A DNA stretch of 64,000 nucleotides from Tilletia caries (Eukaryota; Basidiomycota; Exobasidiomycetes; Tilletiales; Tilletiaceae), in assembly GCA_032718865.1 (NCBI GenBank), contig JALUTQ010000039.1:992001-1056000 (forward strand). Reading direction: 5' to 3'. Positions 24,635-45,434 of this stretch are shown here, piece by piece. Made by a program: the position numbers and the translations under genes. The notes below the pieces were generated by a model that saw only the letters and a list, made by a program, of their open reading frames with translations, made no database searches and was not told the DNA's origin. Numbering within the stretch: the stretch's first letter is position 1; each line of letters starts with the position of its first letter.

Positions 24635-27032
24635 TCACAGCCGATGCTGACCTCTGGTCCATGTTCGTGGCAAATGCATCGCCCTGTCGCGTGCCCTCGC
24701 CTCCCCCAGTAACTGATCATTCCTTCTGTTGCTCTGCAGAACGTGGTCAATGAATGCATCGCCTCCATACTGCTCCTCTCGTTCCACAAGACGAAGCATA
24801 CCGGTGAGAATGTCCTTGGCCTTCGTAAATTGTGCTGTTCTTGTGAGCTGATCGCCGTCCTCGTCGTCTTCACTCTGTCCAAGCCCTTCTCCTTCGCCCA
24901 ACGCATCGCCTTCGGCGTCCAGATCGATCCCGCCCTCTTCATCGTCTGTATGCTCGACCGCCTCGTCCGAATGTCCCTGTGGCTGGACCTCCTGATCGGT
25001 GCGCAGAGGTTTGAGAGAGGGACTGGTCCAGAACGGCGTGGTGCGATTCCGTTGCATGGTGTGAAGAGCAGGCTTGTTCACTGGCTCTACGGCGCTGACC
25101 AGATGCTTGCAGAGAAGGAAACGGCTGCCCAAGAACGATGGACAGGCGCATGTCCAGGTGCGTGCGCTTGTGCTGTACGTTGTGCGGGCCTCTTCACTGA
25201 CTTCTCTTTCCTCCAACTCCTTCCATATCTTGACGAACGCCTTCTTCCAGGCCGGTCGAGTGTGTCGGGTCGATCCCGAGAGCAACGCCTTGACGCGAGC
25301 AAGCGCGTGCGGTACTACCTTGGTACGAAGGATGTACGCGACGAGATCGATTCTTGGCCGTGCAAAACGATGTAAGTAGTCGTGTTTGACGAGCCTCCAG
25401 TGCGATTCGAGTATCATCGTCGTCTTTAACACCGGAATCGTATCACCTGCAGATCGAGCCCACAACTTCCACTTCCCCGGCTCATACCACCTCGCCCACA
25501 TGTACGCCCATACTCGGCCCCAGTTCCGCGACCTGCAAAACTGGTACATCTCAGTGGCAGCCTGCCGATATATTTGGTCAGCGCTGAGACAGAGACCGCC
25601 GAGAGCCGGAATCAGTGGGTGTCGATTGTAGTGATTGCTTAGAAGATCGATGACTGAATCCGAGTCTTCTTTGGTGCATTCCAGCCTGGCCTTCCCGTCC
25701 CATAGTGTTGTTCTGGTGGGACATGTGCAGGCCATTTCCTCGTGTCGCTTCTCGGATGGAGTAGCCCAGCAGAGCTCCAGGTCGGGAATGATTCTGGCGG
25801 CGTCTTCGGGGCGATACGTGGCATTTCCCCGCGCCTTTGAGTCAGAAAGATGCTGACGGACGGCGCGACGGACGTGCCAGTAGCAAAGCTGGACGTTTGC
25901 TGATGGAAACACCTGCCCAATTGCATTGATTTCTGCTTGCTCCTTGTCGCATCCAACGAAGAGAGGATTGATGCCCGCTTCTTTTACTGCGCGAAGAACC
26001 TTGGAAATGAGATGTGTCCGTGGTCGATCTCCGTCCAGTCCCTTAGAATTCAAAAAACAGTATGCCAATGGCACGCCAGTCCCATCCAGCTCTGCCATTA
26101 CCGCTAGAAGATCGTATCCTTGATGGTTTGTTCCGTAAGTTGAATCCAAAGCAATCTCTTTCGTTGTGCTCCGCACCAGCTGGATCGCCTCTTGAGCCAA
26201 CAAAAGCATTCCGCACGGTTCGTCCTGCCAAAGAAGAGTCTCGCTAGTGACGAGTGGACCAAGGTCGTTAACGGCCAAGAGGATCGAGACAAAGGGGTCG
26301 TCATCGAGCAGCCACAGATCCGCGCTTGCATTCCGCCACCAGTAGTAGACTTGTCCTTGGGTAATATTCGTGGCCTCTTGGCGAAGTGAGGGGTGACTGC
26401 GTAGATCCTGGTAAATCTGGAGAGGGGTAGAGTCCAATCGAGACTCGATGTACTCCAGCACCGCAGACGGCACACCACGATCGTCATACGGACGATGATG
26501 TATGTGATTCATGTTGATTATGACCAGGTCCGCATTTGGCTTGACGGAAATTTGCAGAGAACTTTTTGCAGGGAATCGAGGCCACGTAGGCGGATGACAC
26601 GCGACGATTGCTTGACCGTGACTTCTGAAGGTGACAAACGTCCTGACAGCATGTGTAGTGATGGGAGAAGCCTTCATCCGTAATCCTTGTCCGCAACAGA
26701 CGAAACCGGAATCCCGACAATCTCCAGACCTCTTTGACCAGAACGTTGGCTGCGGCTTTCGTATCGTCGACGTCGTTGGTGCAGAGGAGCGCTTCCTCGA
26801 CAGGGACCTCCGAGATCTTCAGGCAAGCGTCTATGTCCACATTGCCCTCCGTCTTGTGTCTTGAGAGAGCAGCTGTGACCGTGGCCCAGGTGGTATCGGC
26901 GGCGGCTCTTTTCAGCTTCTTGTCGCACGTTTTGCGTCTTGAACCATCCCGCTTCAAGGGAAACCTGTCGATGGAATGAGACTGGTTGCAGCTAGTGCAA
27001 AACTGCGTGGCGAATGCTTGTGATGAGGACAT
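24635..27032 (-). pseudogene. MULE transposase with SWIM zinc finger, copy 1 (one frame break)
   Basis: MULE-domain DDE transposase of about 800 residues. The first ATG in frame is 27032 (MSSSQAFATQFCTSCNQSHS). The N-terminus has CTSCNQ...KRDGSRRKTCDKK, a possible zinc cluster. Catalytic blocks: EIALDSTYGTNHQGYDLLAV (first Asp), PLFVGCDKEQAEI with QLCYWHVRRAV (second Asp plus CxWH), and TTMILESHWRLVKHDY (Glu). The SWIM finger is CACPSFLGSRFLLCKHLV. The C-terminal 150 residues are acidic. At 26563-26567 a run of five T (A on the coding strand) replaces the four in copy 2 and shifts the frame between the N-terminal 150 residues and the catalytic part. If the extra base is an assembly error, the gene is intact. 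Confidence 0.85.
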
Positions 27033-31872: not shown

Positions 31873-31877
31873 GGGTG

Positions 31878-32133
31878 TGTACTAGATAGACTAGCAGTGC
31901 GAAGCAATATGCAACAAGTGAAGAGTGAGTAATTGACAAGGAGAAAGAACTAAGTACAAGGATGAGCTCGGGAAGGGAAAAGATGAGGAGGAGAGAGAAT
32001 AGCGTGGGAAATGTGGAGGTACTGGTGTTGCTATGCGGAGGAGTGCGAGTGTGAGAAAAGGAAAGGAAACGAAGAGGAAGAGGAAGAGAACAGATAAGAT
32101 AAGATAAGAGCCACATGGACCTCGTCTAGCACA
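31878..32133 (-). repeat. LTR (3' LTR in element orientation)
   Basis: 256 bp, begins TGTACTAG and ends CTAGCACA on the plus strand. Identical to 34244-34499. The 8-bp ends are imperfect inverted copies of each other, as usual for LTRs. Confidence 0.88.
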
Positions 32134-32192
32134 TCCCCACCGACAAAAGACGACTGTCCCGAGTCGTGGTTGAGGAATGCACCGGATGCGGC

Positions 32193-33935
32193 TCAATGGA
32201 TAGGGAAGAAAAGAGGCGCAAACGAGGGCTGGCTGAAGAGGCTTCGAAGTATCTGCGCGTGGTGTGTGAATGGGCGATAGAGCTGAGGATGGGCGAGGCA
32301 CGGATTCGACGTCCATAGCCATGACACACAAGGCCTGAAGGAAAACAAAGTCGGAAGGTGATGAGGTGAAGAGCTAAGTGGCGGGGGAGGAGCGAAGACC
32401 GACGGAGCAGCGCTACAGTCGCCATAGTGATTGTATGGAAGAGCTGAGACCGTACGATCGACATCCAAAGCAAGGGAGCCAGGAGTGCGCATGGATGATA
32501 CGGAGGCGGTAGTCGGCGGAGCTGAGTCTTCATGTATCCATTGTCGCGCAATTCTCCAAGCCTCTGCGACGCGAGCAAGAGCATGATTCGGAGAAGAGGG
32601 CCGATATGGAGAGCTGATCGCTGTTGGGGCAGCCACATGCACGGGCGGATGAGAAGGAACTTGTGTGGCGGTAAGAGCAGCCGACGCTGCATCCATAACC
32701 TCCTGTCGCAATAGCAGCCACGCTGATCGGATGCGAGCCAGCGCACAGTCGACGGATCCAAGCCTCGCCTCGCTGTGACAGGTACGCGTCGGAGCTTCTG
32801 ATGTGGGGGCAGGAGATGATAGGGTCGGTGCAGACGTCACTTGCGATGACGAAGGTTTCGCGTTCTCACTGCCATGATTGCCAGGCGCGGCTGAGGGACT
32901 CGGTGCGGTTGAATGCGATGACGAGGGCGCGAGTACCGAAGTCGATACCGAGGTGGAGGAGACCAAAGAGCCGGACACCGTTTCGGCAGAAGCAAGTTGG
33001 GTCGCGTCCTGAAGAATGCCCTCATGGTCTGCTTTGGTGCGCGGACGCAATGGATCGATGACTTCGCCAGAAGAAGCGCAGTCCGGAGGCGGTAAACCAA
33101 GGACCGTCGACGAGTGTGTTGTTGAGATGATGCATGGTGGAGAAGAGAATTTGGGCGTTGCGGCGGTAGCCGAAGCGAGGCAAGCAGGTGGTGGATCGTA
33201 CGCATGGGAATGTTGTGCGATCAGTTCCGCGTAAGAACGAGACACGACGGGACGACACTCGGTCGCAGAGCTGGTGGTATGGTCTATTGCGGACGACGAG
33301 GAGGTGCTGATGCCGGGGATGCTCGTATGAGATGGGAGAAGCGAGTCGGAGACCGGTACTGGAGTAGTGGGAGAAGCTGGAGACTGCAGTACCGAAGTTG
33401 GTACCGAGGTTGGTACCCGACTCGCCGAAAGCGTCCCGGCTTTGTCACGGCTCGCTGACTGTCGGCTGGGTCGATCCTGCGCCTTGTCTTCCCGAAGGTC
33501 TTTGAGGAGCTTGCGTACACCGGGCCAATTCGTGGTCGTGGGTGCTGGAGGAGGAAAAGAGATGCGAACGCGAACAGCGCACTCCGTTTCGAAGCGACGA
33601 CCGTCCTTGAAGTATTTGCCAAAGCGCAGCTTGTCGCCATCCGAGAGCGCATGTACACGGTCGCCGAGCAGCCGTCCGTCGATGCACACCGAGTCAGAAT
33701 GCCAGGGGACGGACTTGAGCGTAAAGGAGGAACCATCGTAACGAATGAAAGCCTGGTCGATCACCAAGGCAAAAGAGGGAAGAATGGCGTTGTCCGCAGC
33801 GGGAGCGGGGAGGAAGTTCAAGCCGGGGACGTGGCCATCGAGTTCGAGGGTGGAAGGACGGTCAAAAAAAATGAAGGTCTTGGGGGCAAACGACTCGCCA
33901 GAGCCGGTAGACGAGAGACGAAGCTCGGCGTGCAT
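32193..33935 (-). CDS. FHA-like domain protein inside the LTR element
   Basis: 580 residues from ATG 33935, no introns in a window where most genes have several. Residues about 60-135 resemble a forkhead-associated phosphopeptide-binding domain: SFALVIDQAFIRYDGSSFTL, then HSDSVCIDGRLLGDRVHALS, then DGDKLRFGKYFKDG and CAVRVRISF. This is closest in feel to the SLMAP/Far10-type FHA with its L-x-DGD-x-L-x-F/L-G and VRVRI strand. The usual GR and SRxH recognition residues are not evident, so ligand binding is doubtful. The remaining 440 residues are Ser/Thr/Pro-rich with two related segments, LARIRSAWLLLRQ and LARVAEAWRIARQ. Absence of introns and LTR flanks suggest a captured, reverse-transcribed host gene. 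The FHA call is moderate. Confidence 0.65.
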   Translation of the reverse strand: MHAELRLSSTGSGESFAPKTFIFFDRPSTLELDGHVPGLNFLPAPAADNAILPSFALVIDQAFIRYDGSSFTLKSVPWHSDSVCIDGRLLGDRVHALSDGDKLRFGKYFKDGRRFETECAVRVRISFPPPAPTTTNWPGVRKLLKDLREDKAQDRPSRQSASRDKAGTLSASRVPTSVPTSVLQSPASPTTPVPVSDSLLPSHTSIPGISTSSSSAIDHTTSSATECRPVVSRSYAELIAQHSHAYDPPPACLASATAATPKFSSPPCIISTTHSSTVLGLPPPDCASSGEVIDPLRPRTKADHEGILQDATQLASAETVSGSLVSSTSVSTSVLAPSSSHSTAPSPSAAPGNHGSENAKPSSSQVTSAPTLSSPAPTSEAPTRTCHSEARLGSVDCALARIRSAWLLLRQEVMDAASAALTATQVPSHPPVHVAAPTAISSPYRPSSPNHALARVAEAWRIARQWIHEDSAPPTTASVSSMRTPGSLALDVDRTVSALPYNHYGDCSAAPSVFAPPPPLSSSPHHLPTLFSFRPCVSWLWTSNPCLAHPQLYRPFTHHAQILRSLFSQPSFAPLFFPIH

Positions 33936-34243
33936 GTTGCGGGCGGGATGGCTTGTAGTTGGGGAGGGCCGGACACGAGAGCACTGGAGGAGAGCTGTGG
34001 AGATCTTGGGGCGGAGGGAAGGTTCGACCTCGACGCACGCGCAGCGGAACAGCAGCGAAAGCGCGAGCAGAAGGGCGAGGTGTTCGTGTGACCTGAGAAG
34101 AAAATAAGGTGAAGGTCGAAGGAGGTCAAGAAAGGGACGATGACAGCGGTGAGAAGGTGGGAGGGTAAGGGAGAAGGGTGGTGTCTTGCGGGTCGCTCGG
34201 CCTGCGTACTTCGCTCAGCGGAGCAGATCTACTCTCATCACCA

Positions 34244-34499
34244 TGTACTAGATAGACTAGCAGTGCGAAGCAATATGCAACAAGTGAAGAGTGAGTAATT
34301 GACAAGGAGAAAGAACTAAGTACAAGGATGAGCTCGGGAAGGGAAAAGATGAGGAGGAGAGAGAATAGCGTGGGAAATGTGGAGGTACTGGTGTTGCTAT
34401 GCGGAGGAGTGCGAGTGTGAGAAAAGGAAAGGAAACGAAGAGGAAGAGGAAGAGAACAGATAAGATAAGATAAGAGCCACATGGACCTCGTCTAGCACA
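34244..34499 (-). repeat. LTR (5' LTR in element orientation)
   Basis: 256 bp, identical to 31878-32133. Immediately followed on the minus strand by TGGTGATGAGAG, positioned as a primer-binding site. Confidence 0.88.
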
Positions 34500-34504
34500 G
34501 GGTG

Positions 34505-35435
34505 AGTGGGCTGTGCCACGGCGCTGACTTAGGCAGCTGGAGGCGTTCTTTGCGTGCGAGGTGAAAATGGTCTGTTGTGTCACGTGACAGGTACACGGAT
34601 GTCGCGGTGTGCGGCGTGTCATGCATGTCATTTTCATGAGTGTGCGCCGTGTCACGGCGTGCGCGCACATGAAATGACATGAATGACGGCGTGTGCACGC
34701 ATGAAATGACACGAATGACACGGCTGCATGCGCGGATGCGGAACTGCAACGACATGACCCACAGAAAGTCCACAGGGGATACACAAAAGCAGGTTTGATA
34801 CACGGGGGATCCATTTAAATTTTCACTGAGCTCCAGTGCCCAAATTTTCGACGATCCGTTAAAAAGAGGCCCGTGCGAGCTGTCTGGTGGCCGCTCCGCA
34901 CGACGCAGTCAACACGAAGATTAGCTGCTCCACAGCGACGAACACAATGGCCAGCCGTGACACAACAAAGAAGCCAATGGCAAGGAAAACACCATGGCGC
35001 TGCTCCTTGCCTGCTGAGCTCGCGGCAGCGCTGTCTTTGTGCTGATTTCGTTTGGCGAAAATGGAAGCTGAGAGGAGGAGAAGTGGGCCTTCAGACGGTG
35101 TTGGGTCAAAAAGTTGCAGGCACCTTCCAATTGAATCGGGTCGAATGTCCCCAGACCGCGTACGCGGTATAGTGCTTTAGCTCATTTGAGAGTTACAAGG
35201 TCTGGTGTGACCAGACTATCGGGGCCCCCAACTTTTTTTGGACTTGGGGGTCCTTCCACGTGTTTTCAGCAAATCGGGCGAAAGTGCCTTGAACAGGCCG
35301 CCCAATCCCAAGGGGGTGGGGATATTTCTCGCGACACGGTGTGGACAGAATAGGCATGACCATGAATTTCACTACTCACTTGGGACGAGCGAGCCTCCAG
35401 CATTTATTATACTCCAAAGGAAGCCAGGCGCGGCG
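34505..35435. other. Repeat remnant and upstream region of the Sds3-like gene
   Basis: 34505-34828 belongs to the presumed old element and contains a strong imperfect hairpin (34624-34684) plus a duplicated 19-mer ATGAAATGACA(T/C)GAATGAC spaced 32 bp apart. 34829-35435 is the upstream region of the next gene, with a hairpin around GGCCCCCAA...TTGGGGGTCC at about 35221-35252. No gene seen. Confidence 0.5.
34624..34684. repeat. Long imperfect palindrome
   Basis: The arms read CATGTCATTTTCATG..GTGTGCGCC and, about 10 nt later, the inverse GGCG..GCGCACATGAAATGACATG. About 25-bp arms with two small mismatched positions. Confidence 0.75.
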
Positions 35436-37351
35436 ATGTCGGAAAACAGCAGCAGCACGAGGGACGCAGAGCTCGCGGCGGTCGAGGTCGCAGCCATCCT
35501 CGCCGCCGCTCCCACCGCAGGCGCAGCTCCCGGTACCAGCAGCAGCAGCAGCGGCGGCGGCGGCGATCCATCAACATCACAACAGCAGGGCCGAGCTGGC
35601 GACGACGTCGAGGACGAGGACGATGATGTCGAGATGGGCGACGCTGCGCAGGAATCCCAGCAGGAAGGAGCTGCAGTCGCGAGTACAGCGGCGGCACCCG
35701 CCAACTCAGGCCCGGGCCGCTCTCCATCTCCATCTCCCCTCCCCTCGGATTCCGATGATGATGAGCTCTCCGTGCTCAGCTCCATCAGTGGCACCGAAAA
35801 CGACAGCGATGAGTCCGATGATCAGTCGCCCCCACCTCCAGGCCGCCAGCAAAATGGAAACAATGGGAATCAAGGTCGTCGCTCGACCTGGGCTGATGCA
35901 GAGGACGACAGCGGCAGTTCGGACATCTCAGAGCCGACGGGAGATGACGCCCAGCGCAGAGGCGGGCAGTCCGATGATGAGGACGACGACGACGAGGAAG
36001 ATCCCTATGTGGAGGATTCTGCGCGGATACATCCTGCTGTGGAACGTTCATCACGGTACAAGCCGGCATCCGAGGATGGAGCAAGCGGCAGCGATGACGA
36101 CGCCGACGATGACCGACGAAATGTCGGGCCTTCTGCGGCCGCTGCCGCTGCTGGTGCACAATCCGAAGATCAGCCAGCAAGCGCAACGGTGGTATCCGAT
36201 TCCTCCGACCTCGGCTCTCCTGAGTCCATCGCAGACACCGAACCTCTTCCCTTTGAAGACTCACAGGCCCAGGCGGGCGAAGCTGCACCGGTCGATGACG
36301 ACGAAGACGAGGAAGAGGAGGAGGAAGAGCAGCGGGGTCGAGGAGAGGCACCGACACCTACAGCTGCCTCCCTTGCTGAAGCCGTCAAGGACGATCGGGA
36401 GGAAGTTACGACTGGCTCACCACAGGAAGCCATGGAGTCACTCACACGCATCGAGATTCAGTTTGCAATGCTGCGCGATCGACTCTACGTCGAGCGAATG
36501 GAAGAGGTCTGCCGTGAGACAGAAATGGTTCTCGAAGGTGAGAAATGGGACAAAATTCGGTGCTCTTATCTGGCTTTTCTCCCTACATCGTACTGACATT
36601 TTTCTAATGACCACCCAACCAGGAACGCATCCGGAGCTGATACGATTCACACGCGCCATCGACCAAGTCCGCGAAAGGAGATTGCGTCTTCTCGATCTAG
36701 AGCTCGAAAAGCAAGTGAATCATTATGAGCAGGTTGCCGAAGGCGAAGAACATGTCATATGGAATTCTTACAGAGTGAGTCCTGCAACAAGGTCTACTTC
36801 CATATGGCTTGATCACCGTTCTGAACATTTTGCCCGCACACACACAGTACCAAGCCGCCGATCTGCGACAAGACATGATGGACGAGTCCGCGCGCAAGCG
36901 TCGTCGCCTCGAGCGAGAAAAGCGCCTTATCGACGTACCCCGGCCCGCCCGAAGACACCAAACCTTCGAAACCGAGCTCGTACCCAACCCGGACCGGCAA
37001 TACTCGGCCGCCCTCCGCGCCCGACGGAGGGAGATCGCCATCGCGGACGCGAGCGCAGCGGTCGCCGCTGCTGGATCCAGTCATCCAGACTCGGCACGAC
37101 GGGCGGCGGGCGTTGTGCAGCAGTTGCAGGAGGGCGCGGCGGAGGAGGATGCGAATGATTATGTGGCGTATCCGGAAGTGAAGGGTTTGGACGAGAGCGA
37201 GCTTTGGAGTGACTTAGATAGGATGGGGGTGAGTTGTCTCAAGCTGATGGTTTCGGAGGTGCCCTGCTGGCTTACATGCTGACGACGCCTTTCTGTTCTT
37301 CAGGGCTACTCCGCCAACTGGGCCATGGGAAGCTACGAGCCTGCGAGATGA
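35436..37351 (+). CDS. Sds3-like subunit of the Rpd3/Sin3 histone deacetylase complex
   Basis: Four exons (35436-36537, 36623-36774, 36848-37228, 37304-37351), 560 residues. The first 330 residues are acidic, Ser/Ala/Gly-rich and disordered. The Sds3-like domain follows: MESLTRIEIQFAMLRDRLYV, ERMEEVCRETEMVLE|GTHPEL, then QVRERRLRLLDLELEKQ and EGEEHVIWNSYR, then LRQDMMDESARKRRRLEREK, a long coiled coil that in this family holds the Sin3-Rpd3 complex together. I chose MSENSSSTRD at 35436; an upstream in-frame start is possible but unsupported. The last exon is tiny (GYSANWAMGSYEPAR). The domain could equally be named Dep1-like. Confidence 0.88.
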
Positions 37352-42978: not shown

Positions 42979-45434
42979 ATGTCCTCATCACAAGCATTCG
43001 CCACGCAGTTTTGCACTAGCTGCAACCAGTCTCATTCCATCGACAGGTTTCCCTTGAAGCGGGATGGTTCAAGACGCAAAACGTGCGACAAGAAGCTGAA
43101 AAGAGCCGCCGCCGATACCACCTGGGCCACGGTCACAGCTGCTCTCTCAAGACACAAGACGGAGGGCAATGTGGACATAGACGCTTGCCTGAAGATCTCG
43201 GAGGTCCCTGTCGAGGAAGCGCTCCTCTGCACCAACGACGTCGACGATACGAAAGCCGCAGCCAACGTTCTGGTCAAAGAGGTCTGGAGATTGTCGGGAT
43301 TCCGGTTTCGTCTGTTGCGGACAAGGATTACGGATGAAGGCTTCTCCCATCACTACACATGCTGTCAGGACGTTTGTCACCTTCAGAAGTCACGGTCAAG
43401 CAATCGTCGCGTGTCATCCGCCTACGTGGCCTCGATTCCCTGCAAAAGTTCTCTGCAAATTTCCGTCAAGCCAAATGCGGACCTGGTCATAATCAACATG
43501 AATCACATACATCATCGTCCGTATGACGATCGTGGTGTGCCGTCTGCGGTGCTGGAGTACATCGAGTCTCGATTGGACTCTACCCCTCTCCAGATTTACC
43601 AGGATCTACGCAGTCACCCCTCACTTCGCCAAGAGGCCACGAATATTACCCAAGGACAAGTCTACTACTGGTGGCGGAATGCAAGCGCGGATCTGTGGCT
43701 GCTCGATGACGACCCCTTTGTCTCGATCCTCTTGGCCGTTAACGACCTTGGTCCACTCGTCACTAGCGAGACTCTTCTTTGGCAGGACGAACCGTGCGGA
43801 ATGCTTTTTGTTGGCTCAAGAGGCGATCCAGCTGGTGCGGAGCACAACGAAAGAGATTGCTTTGGATTCAACTTACGGAACAAACCATCAAGGATACGAT
43901 CTTCTAGCGGTAATGGCAGAGCTGGATGGGACTGGCGTGCCATTGGCATACTGTTTTTTGAATTCTAAGGGACTGGACGGAGATCGACCACGGACACATC
44001 TCATTTCCAAGGTTCTTCGCGCAGTAAAAGAAGCGGGCATCAATCCTCTCTTCGTTGGATGCGACAAGGAGCAAGCAGAAATCAATGCAATTGGGCAGGT
44101 GTTTCCATCAGCAAACGTCCAGCTTTGCTACTGGCACGTCCGTCGCGCCGTCCGTCAGCATCTTTCTGACTCAAAGGCGCGGGGAAATGCCACGTATCGC
44201 CCCGAAGACGCCGCCAGAATCATTCCCGACCTGGAGCTCTGCTGGGCTATTCCATCCGAGAAGCGACACGAGGAAATGGCCTGCACATGTCCCACCAGAA
44301 CAACACTATGGGACGGGAAGGCCAGGCTGGAATGCACCAAAGAAGACTCGGATTCAGTCATCGATCTTCTAAGCAATCACTACAATCGACACCCACTGAT
44401 TCCGGCTCTCGGCGGTCTCTGTCTCAGCGCTGACCAAATATATCGGCAGGCTGCCACTGAGATGTACCAGTTTTTGCAGGTCGCGGAACTGGGGCCGAGT
44501 ATGGGCGTACATGTGGGCGAGGTGGTATGAGCCGGGGAAGTGGAAGTTGTGGGCTCGATCTGCAGGTGATACGATTCCGGTGTTAAAGACGACGATGATA
44601 CTCGAATCGCACTGGAGGCTCGTCAAACACGACTACTTACATCGTTTTGCACGGCCAAGAATCAATCTCGTCGCGTACATCCTTCGTACCAAGGTAGTAC
44701 CGCACGCGCTTGCTCGCGTCAAGGCGTTGCTCTCGGGCTCGACCCGACACACTCGACCGGCCTGGAAGAAGGCGTTCGTCAAGATATGGAAGGAGTTGGA
44801 GGAAAGAGAAGTCAGTGAAGAGGCCCGCACAACGTACAGCACAAGCGCACGCACCTGGACATGCGCCTGTCCATCGTTCTTGGGCAGCCGTTTCCTTCTC
44901 TGCAAGCATCTGGTCAGCGCCGTAGAGCCAGTGAACAAGCCTGCTCTTCACACCATGCAACGGAATCGCACCACGCCGTTCTGGACCAGTCCCTCTCTCA
45001 AACCTCTGCGCACCGATCAGGAGGTCCAGCCACAGGGACATTCGGACGAGGCGGTCGAGCATACAGACGATGAAGAGGGCGGGATCGATCTGGACGCCGA
45101 AGGCGATGCGTTGGGCGAAGGAGAAGGGCTTGGACAGAGTGAAGACGACGAGGACGGCGATCAGCTCACAAGAACAGCACAATTTACGAAGGCCAAGGAC
45201 ATTCTCACCGGTATGCTTCGTCTTGTGGAACGAGAGGAGCAGTATGGAGGCGATGCATTCATTGACCACGTTCTGCAGAGCAACAGAAGGAATGATCAGT
45301 TACTGGGGGAGGCGAGGGCACGCGACAGGGCGATGCATTTGCCACGAACATGGACCAGAGGTCAGCATCCGGCTGTGATGTACATCAGAGGCAGCGGGGG
45401 TCTTGGTTCCGCTCCTGATGCTCGTCCGCGGTAA
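42979..45434 (+). pseudogene. MULE transposase with SWIM zinc finger, copy 2 (frame breaks)
   Basis: Same protein as in copy 1. Here the N-terminal zinc-like region joins the MULE part in one frame (VASIPCKSSLQISVK), but five T at 43805-43809 against four in copy 1 shift the frame just before the first catalytic block, and five T at 44471-44475 against four shift it again inside the MULE domain. A CC against C difference near 45368 changes the C-terminal end. The catalytic and SWIM segments (LDSTYGTN, CDKEQAEI, ILESHW, CACPSFLGS) are all present across the frames. Confidence 0.85.

What the first reader, a model, noticed from the sequence alone, without database searches (positions are those of the whole stretch)
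31878..34499. LTR retroelement whose only gene is an intronless FHA-like protein
Seen: two identical 256-bp TG...CA direct repeats, a 5-bp GGGTG duplication outside them, a TGG start next to one LTR and a GGTGGGGA run before the other, both in the orientation that makes the single 580-codon frame sense. No gag/pol motifs. Known: some LTR elements capture host transcripts (maize Bs1 is an example). Inferred: this is a recently moved retroelement that carries a processed FHA-domain gene, possibly a gene-delivery or domesticated unit not described before.
Basis: partly seen in the sequence, partly recalled or inferred. Interest (0 to 1): 0.88.

Follow-up and report, generated by a model that had tools for sequence, protein, structure and literature searches.

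The report
FHA-gene LTR retroelement family in bunt fungi
A short jumping element of a Tilletia bunt fungus carries, in place of the usual virus-like genes, a single conserved gene for a protein with a signalling-adaptor (FHA-type) domain, and the same gene recurs in many related copies and in other Tilletia species, so it looks like a working part of the element rather than a stray captured gene.

Summary
Window 31878-34499 is a complete, recently inserted LTR element: two identical 256-bp LTRs, 5-bp target duplication GGGTG, a tRNA primer site, a polypurine tract and one 580-codon sense frame; no gag or pol domain was found. The genome (a Tilletia) holds a large family of such elements. In the loci read, an FHA-type frame follows the conserved 5' leader in sense at 24 of 24 sites (15 of 15 in loci chosen by LTR alone); 35 of 57 leader places in the genome were not read. 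Copies have diverged below 30% identity, yet the FHA domain shows purifying selection (dN/dS 0.19-0.36 in five pairs; shifted forward frames 0.92-1.68), and homologues lie in T. controversa, T. laevis and T. indica. Profile, Pfam and fold comparisons say FHA, nearest SLMAP/Far9, with canonical phosphothreonine residues lost. The primer is tRNA-Leu(CAG). Best explanation: a gag/pol-less LTR family, moved in trans probably by Ty3/gypsy helpers, that keeps an FHA-adaptor gene as its only protein. Helper, donor gene and protein function remain unproven.

The parts
31873..31877 (.). target-site duplication GGGTG (left)
31878..32133 (-). 3' LTR (in gene sense), 256 bp
   Evidence: identical to the other LTR; 45 matches in own genome
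32134..32163 (-). conserved 3' end of the internal region with polypurine tract GTCGGTGGGGA next to the LTR
   Evidence: 40 matches in the genome for an 81-base query across this junction, 40 of 102 candidates scored, some covering the LTR part only
32193..33935 (-). single sense frame, 580 aa: FHA-type domain, Ser/Pro/Thr-rich linker, two short helical motifs
33546..33935 (-). FHA-type domain, residues 1-130
   Evidence: profile to SLMAP/Far9 FHA, fold model, leave-clade-out HMM
33486..33533 (-). conserved motif TNWPGVRKLL..LR after the FHA domain
33216..33236 (-). SYAELIA motif, recurring as SYGDLV/PYGQLV in other lineages
32697..32756 (-). first helical motif ALARIRSAWLLLRQEV
   Evidence: recurs in other lineages
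32535..32594 (-). second helical motif ALARVAEAWRIARQWI
34201..34219 (-). conserved leader motif (GCTGAGCGAAGTACGCAGG), beginning 24 nt after the 5' LTR
   Evidence: 57 places in the genome at up to 2 mismatches, control 0
34231..34243 (-). primer-binding site TGGTGATGAGAGT, complementary to the 3' end of tRNA-Leu(CAG)
   Evidence: tRNA gene L059; 248 genome places of the LTR-PBS 13-mer, control 0
34244..34499 (-). 5' LTR (in gene sense), 256 bp
34500..34504 (.). target-site duplication GGGTG (right)

Best explanation
This is one young, intact member of an old family of gag/pol-less LTR retroelements in Tilletia. The family transcript is primed by tRNA-Leu(CAG) and copied and integrated in trans, most likely by Ty3/gypsy-type elements that use the same primer site (anatomy shown; helper inferred). 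Long before the present copies spread, an ancestral element acquired an FHA domain, probably of the SLMAP/Far9 (STRIPAK) type, with its linker and helical tail (homology shown; capture event and donor inferred). The gene has since been kept by selection as the element's only protein (selection on the FHA domain shown between lineages). I infer that the protein helps the element's own spread: its FHA fold, now without the canonical phosphothreonine residues, serves as an adaptor that docks on a helper-element or host protein, and its helical motifs mediate self- or partner-binding. For selection to hold in a trans-mobilised element, the protein should act preferentially on the RNA it is made from.
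Against: No expression data. The helper is not identified: the LTR ends of RT-bearing elements share only short stretches (71% over 126 nt at best). Of 57 leader places, 16 have an FHA match and 6 more were read and have it; 35 were not read and may carry something else. L020 scores only 1.4 bits in the leave-clade-out test, below the best shuffle, and the rest of clade E only 19.5-19.9. Single-sequence Pfam gives no FHA above cutoff for the window copy, L013, L017, L055, L056, P0007, P0008 or P0011. The model is of middling confidence (pLDDT 69, pTM 0.59) and no Foldseek hit reaches E 0.001. The closest relatives of the window copy in the same genome have broken frames (L009, L010, L011). dN/dS is less clean elsewhere: 0.44 for L014 versus the window, 0.38-0.43 for two full-length pairs, 0.57-0.82 for three very young pairs, and undefined by saturation for two pairs.
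Confidence: 0.62

Rival explanations
1. Repeated capture: LTR elements of this group took the FHA gene several times from selected host paralogues, so the purifying selection reflects host genes and the elements merely carry passengers.
For: Lineages are very diverged (16-34% identity to the window FHA for the distant ones). Young pairs show weak constraint (0.57-0.82 on few changes).
Against: The clades of the genome whose 5' end was read share the leader motif at the same distance from the PBS, except L055 and, by eye, L064 and L065; FHA, linker and helical motif recur in the same order in most members. The loci of this group that were read have a PBS or leader upstream. The one host SLMAP-type FHA read keeps canonical residues that the elements lack.
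Confidence: 0.15
2. Passenger only: a single old capture, now neutral, copied along because the LTRs are mobile; intact frames are recent survivors.
For: Broken frames in L009-L011; no expression evidence; dN/dS of young pairs 0.57-0.82.
Against: dN/dS 0.19-0.36 between lineages with bootstrap upper limits of 0.34-0.55, against 0.92-1.68 in shifted forward frames; frames of 473-580 aa are open in the window copy, L014, L015 (second element), L017, L018, L019, L049, L055 and L056.
Confidence: 0.13
3. The protein serves the host (domesticated or pathogenicity-related), and the LTR element is its vehicle.
For: Conserved across Tilletia species.
Against: No single-copy host version was seen among the matches (synteny was not tested); the two-LTR copies have LTR pairs 97.8-100% identical, often with target duplications, at scattered places.
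Confidence: 0.05
4. The frame is not FHA but an unrelated beta-rich protein, such as a derived Gag.
For: Weak single-sequence Pfam score; middling model.
Against: Relatives pass the Pfam FHA cutoff; an HMM trained on element proteins alone scores the host SLMAP-type FHA at 46.9 bits (best shuffle 4.3); the listed fold rows are FHA proteins.
Confidence: 0.05

Closest known systems
Maize Bs1 (LTR element with transduced host gene segments)
   Same: LTR element with a host-derived coding segment; passages of PMC13317346 seen.
   Different: As described there, Bs1 holds segments of three host genes, none with a full-length ORF. Here one gene type recurs across a large, diverged family and several species.
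TRIM / tandemly arrayed TRIM elements of plants
   Same: Short, lacking gag/pol, probably helper-dependent; tandem arrays sharing LTRs are also seen here (passages of PMC4717578 seen).
   Different: TRIMs have a short internal domain (abstract start of PMC6934838) and gene fragments only in a few (30 elements of seven subfamilies in PMC4717578). Here a selected gene of about 400-580 codons fills the element.
LTR-captured genes of rice and sorghum
   Same: Captured genes in LTR elements, most of those of rice reported under negative selection (passage of PMC13317346).
   Different: Those are many different genes, with selection read as continued function. Here one gene is tied to one element family.
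Replication-defective, gene-carrying retroviruses needing a helper (recalled, no call)
   Same: LTRs, primer site and packaging leader kept, gag/pol replaced by a cellular gene, helper needed.
   Different: Those are sporadic and short-lived; this family is old and diversified, and lives as a genomic retroelement.
SLMAP/Far9 FHA domains of STRIPAK
   Same: Nearest solved FHA relatives by profile and, tied with other FHA domains, by fold.
   Different: The element domain lacks the Arg of 'GR' and the Ser of 'SxxH' in nearly all rows; the window copy lacks the His too.

Membership tests
LTR retrotransposon (mechanistic class) | long terminal direct repeats TG...CA with target-site duplication | tested here: met
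LTR retrotransposon (mechanistic class) | tRNA primer-binding site and polypurine tract in one orientation | tested here: met
LTR retrotransposon (mechanistic class) | own gag and pol (autonomy) | tested here: not met
   Pfam scans of the 580-aa frame and seven other frames of the window copy; no RT match listed inside the element in the capped lists
Non-autonomous partner of Ty3/gypsy | LTR, PBS and PPT shared with an autonomous gypsy element | tested here: inconclusive
   same PBS near RVT_1 matches, LTR ends alike only in short stretches; their PPT and integrase order were not read
TRIM / LARD | internal region without coding function | tested here: not met
   580-aa frame whose FHA domain is under purifying selection between lineages
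FHA domain | FHA sequence profile | tested here: met
   family members over the Pfam cutoff (P0009, P0010, L064; genome places); the window copy itself is below the cutoff but linked by leave-clade-out HMM, 63.1 bits
FHA domain | FHA beta-sandwich fold | tested here: met
FHA domain | phosphothreonine-binding residues (GR, SxxH, N/G; recalled) | tested here: not met
   alignment with host FHA; only the N/D-G turn is kept in the window copy
Processed host gene capture | intron-containing parent gene in the genome | not tested
   host SLMAP-type FHA loci found (C15, C39), but only 271 bases of one were read

The most novel reading that the evidence does not exclude
A self-standing class of 'satellite' LTR retroelements: gag/pol is entirely replaced by one STRIPAK-derived FHA adaptor that the element evolved for its own use, acting in cis to recruit helper gypsy particles or a host kinase/phosphatase complex to its own RNA, and kept through speciation within a fungal genus.
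Probability: 0.35. Interest if true: 0.8.

Novelty: new variant of a known kind. Interest (0 to 1): 0.62.

Why it matters
Elements without gag/pol are normally read as decayed or non-coding parasites. A diversified family whose only gene is a conserved, selected signalling-adaptor domain would show that a helper-dependent retroelement can evolve and keep a protein of its own. It also makes testable how trans-mobilised elements gain preference for their own RNA. Practically, the relatives found in Tilletia records are named 'hypothetical protein' or 'unnamed protein product' and could be labelled as element genes.

Tried and rejected
Single-sequence Pfam and PDB searches of the whole 580-aa frame found no FHA (the only Pfam row, Cas_GSU0054 E 0.015, is below its cutoff and taken as chance). 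Searching for an autonomous partner by matching the 3' junction: by eye, none of the 40 matches lies just downstream of a listed RT. The RT searches scored only 150 of 378 and 150 of 211 candidates, and only 40 of 102, so this is not an absence. LTR pairs 6-7 kb apart for the L056-type LTR (C7:1343617/1349869 and C7:2384810/2391785) have no RT listed inside and were not read. The PBS-like 12-mer at window 42292 has no relative of five LTRs tried near it and is taken as chance. Host domestication was considered and not supported. The idea that the LTR is a plain dispersed repeat was rejected from pairs, PBS and target duplications; L021, L022, L024, L025, L026, L028, L057 and L058 hold LTR matches without PBS or leader, probably solo or broken LTRs. 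Pairs left out of the bootstrap: window/L050 and L049/L050 (saturated), L019/L050 (0.13, near saturation), L014/window (0.44), and the full-length and young pairs. In one search, 154, 51 and 2 of 1000 bootstrap draws were undefined for L014/L055, L019/L049 and window/L019. Literature: 'forkhead-associated' + 'LTR retrotransposon' + 'non-autonomous' 0 papers; 'FHA domain' + 'retrotransposon' + 'TRIM' + 'fungi' 1 paper, on bacterial death domains; 'FHA domain' + 'LTR retrotransposon' 2 papers, on ERVK integrase and on Ty1 regulators; 'Tilletia' + 'FHA domain' 0. Searches gave listings only. For two genome papers, PMC9172201 and PMC10849329, I saw passages only; 'FHA' occurs 0 times in either main text. 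Subscription papers and preprints are not covered.

Full report
What is there. The finding's coordinates hold. Window 31878-34499 (own genome C34:1023878-1026499) is an LTR element with two identical 256-nt LTRs, GGGTG on both outer sides, and one 580-codon frame on the minus strand. The pair is the only ungapped direct repeat of 100 nt or more found in the window. In gene sense the 5' LTR is followed by TGGTGATGAGAGT and the 3' LTR is preceded by GTCGGTGGGGA. Pfam found no gag or pol domain in the 580-aa frame or in seven further frames. Identical LTRs mean a recent insertion.

Where it is. The first 165 residues of the frame are 98% identical to a hypothetical protein of Tilletia controversa, with relatives in T. 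indica, and in T. laevis by profile search. The genome searched is 38.1 Mb in 40 contigs; 38.18 Mb is given for T. caries in the abstract start of PMC10684912 (listing). I infer a wheat-bunt Tilletia; the species is not proven. T. indica, of the same genus, stands on plant-pathogen control lists (recalled), so I describe only and refer bench work.

The primer. The 3' end of a tRNA gene at C3:349690-349850 (L059) is complementary to the primer site; ARAGORN reads it as tRNA-Leu(CAG) with a 19-nt intron (a first ARAGORN call with bacterial settings found nothing). Two related elements give direct evidence of use. L018 has, after its 3' LTR, TGG plus 42 nt complementary to this tRNA, ending just 3' of the intron site (next to position 37), and then ACTAG, the same five bases that precede its 5' LTR. 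L019 has a 33-nt tRNA copy between two copies of its LTR end. That the copying stopped at a modified base (m1G37) is my inference from recalled tRNA-Leu modification.

The family. The 256-bp LTR gave 45 matches in the genome (40 of 270 candidates scored), many as spaced pairs. Of 17 insertions with two LTRs examined, 10 have exact 5-bp target duplications: 9, plus L018. L016, L020 and L056 fail; L012, L014, L019 and L052 show none by eye. LTR ends, PBS and PPT are shared in most. Just inside the PBS lies a 19-nt leader motif found at 57 places with up to 2 mismatches (reversed-pattern control 0). The 13-mer spanning the LTR end and PBS occurs at 248 places (control 0; only 100 listed); RT-bearing elements use it as well.

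The gene belongs to the family. An HMM built from element FHA domains, with the host sequence left out, finds an FHA frame in sense downstream of 24 of 24 leader sites (up to 3 mismatches) in the 31 sources scanned; the reversed proteins gave no hit in 3924 frames. Many of these sequences, or near copies, were in the training set; L023, L051, L052, L053 and L054 were not. In the 20 loci chosen by LTR match alone (L009-L028), 15 of 15 leader sites, in 13 loci, have the FHA frame; the other seven loci have no leader. L055 has the FHA frame and PBS without the leader. L027 has a PBS near its end without leader or FHA hit, but only about 500 bases of what follows were held. Of the 57 leader places in the genome, 16 have an FHA match or 42 within 900 nt, and 10 of the 26 N-terminal FHA matches that I listed from those calls lack a listed leader. 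Six more leader places (in L013, L017, L018, L020, L023, L056) were read and have the frame.

Selection. For the N-terminal 165 codons, dN/dS is 0.29 (bootstrap 0.18-0.45) for window versus L049, 0.36 (0.21-0.55) for window versus L019, 0.19 (0.10-0.34) for L014/L055, 0.33 (0.21-0.47) for L013/L015b and 0.29 (0.15-0.48) for L019/L049. The other forward frames give 0.92-1.68. One of the three reverse frames gives 0.36-0.51, as expected where third positions pair with third positions (reason inferred). In one search, L014 versus the window gives 0.44, L019/L050 0.13 near saturation, and two pairs are saturated; full-length frames give 0.43 (window/L049), 0.38 (L013/L015b) and 0.13 (L014/L055, saturated), and three very young pairs 0.57-0.82 on few changes. 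Against the reading: the closest relatives of the window copy (L009, L010, L011) have broken frames.

The rest of the protein. A linker rich in Ser, Pro and Thr carries repeated TSVLTSVL and SYGDLV-like motifs in many members, and the tail carries a helical motif of the form LALxRVRxAWxxAR. A regular expression for the tail motif found 0.87 per protein in 15 proteins against 0.009 in shuffles; it missed the window copy, P0003 and P0005; in the window copy a looser version is visible twice. In the C10 and C7 relatives L064 and L065, which pass the FHA cutoff, a probable coiled coil follows the FHA domain (by eye).

Helper. 150 RVT_1 and 151 RVT_2 matches were counted, with 150 of 378 and 150 of 211 candidates scored. 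Several RVT_1 matches lie about 3.6 kb downstream of the same PBS (for example C5:2145822 and 2149390); I take them as gypsy-type, without having read their integrase order. Four such LTR ends were read: L060 matches element LTRs at 71% over 126 nt (E 3e-6), L063 at 80-85% over 47-54 nt, L061 and L062 only over 31-34 nt; 120 shuffled queries of L060-L062 gave 0 hits. This supports kinship of the ends and a gypsy-type helper, but names none. The leader motif of the FHA elements is not seen, by eye, in the short stretches after the PBS of these four.

How it most likely works. Shown: LTR retroelement anatomy, tRNA-Leu priming, an FHA gene in every leader-bearing element read, selection on its FHA domain between lineages. 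Inferred: mobilisation in trans by gypsy; single ancient capture from an SLMAP/Far9-type gene; function of the protein in the element's own spread as an adaptor; cis preference. The shared leader is a candidate packaging signal (inference).

Compared with the known. Bs1 carries partial segments of three host genes; TRIMs are short with few gene fragments, though they also form tandem arrays (passages of PMC13317346 and PMC4717578). I found no description of an FHA gene in an LTR element in the open library. I call it a new variant of a known kind.

Noticed in passing
L010 (C4:154186-159954), L050 (C34:817000-821857), C3:556163-565210, C32:812336-821169, C22:647253-653709, C5:436210-441170, C6:83144-87767: Tandem arrays of two to four element units sharing LTRs at regular spacing (about 2.2-3.1 kb). 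In L010 and L050, which were read, one target duplication flanks the whole array; the other five are inferred from match positions. Similar to tandemly arrayed TRIMs of plants.
   Followed up: partly
L018:5875-5924: Integration of tRNA-Leu(CAG) sequence: TGG plus 42 nt complementary to the primer tRNA between the 3' LTR and the target duplication, ending beside position 37.
   Followed up: partly
L019:4284-4402: LTR end and PBS duplicated with a 33-nt tRNA copy between, a probable trace of reverse transcriptase reading into the tRNA primer.
   Followed up: partly
L013:3869-4645 and the second unit of L010 (about 774 bases longer than the first): Both elements hold a nearly identical extra stretch (frame ...TTALRRNSAEFRAPHTRSTEEHYE...) in the internal region, perhaps another mobile sequence.
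   Followed up: no
window 24635-26677 and 43523-44530: Two frames with MULE transposase domains (Pfam PF10551).
   Followed up: no
window 35238-37158: Sds3-like frames (25.2 and 20.2 bits, below the Pfam cutoff of 25.4) begin about 740 bases beyond the element; effect of the insertion on them is unknown.
   Followed up: no
G000: tRNA-Leu 3'-end sequence occurs exactly at 23 places; several coincide with PBS sites, so more elements may carry long tRNA copies.
   Followed up: no
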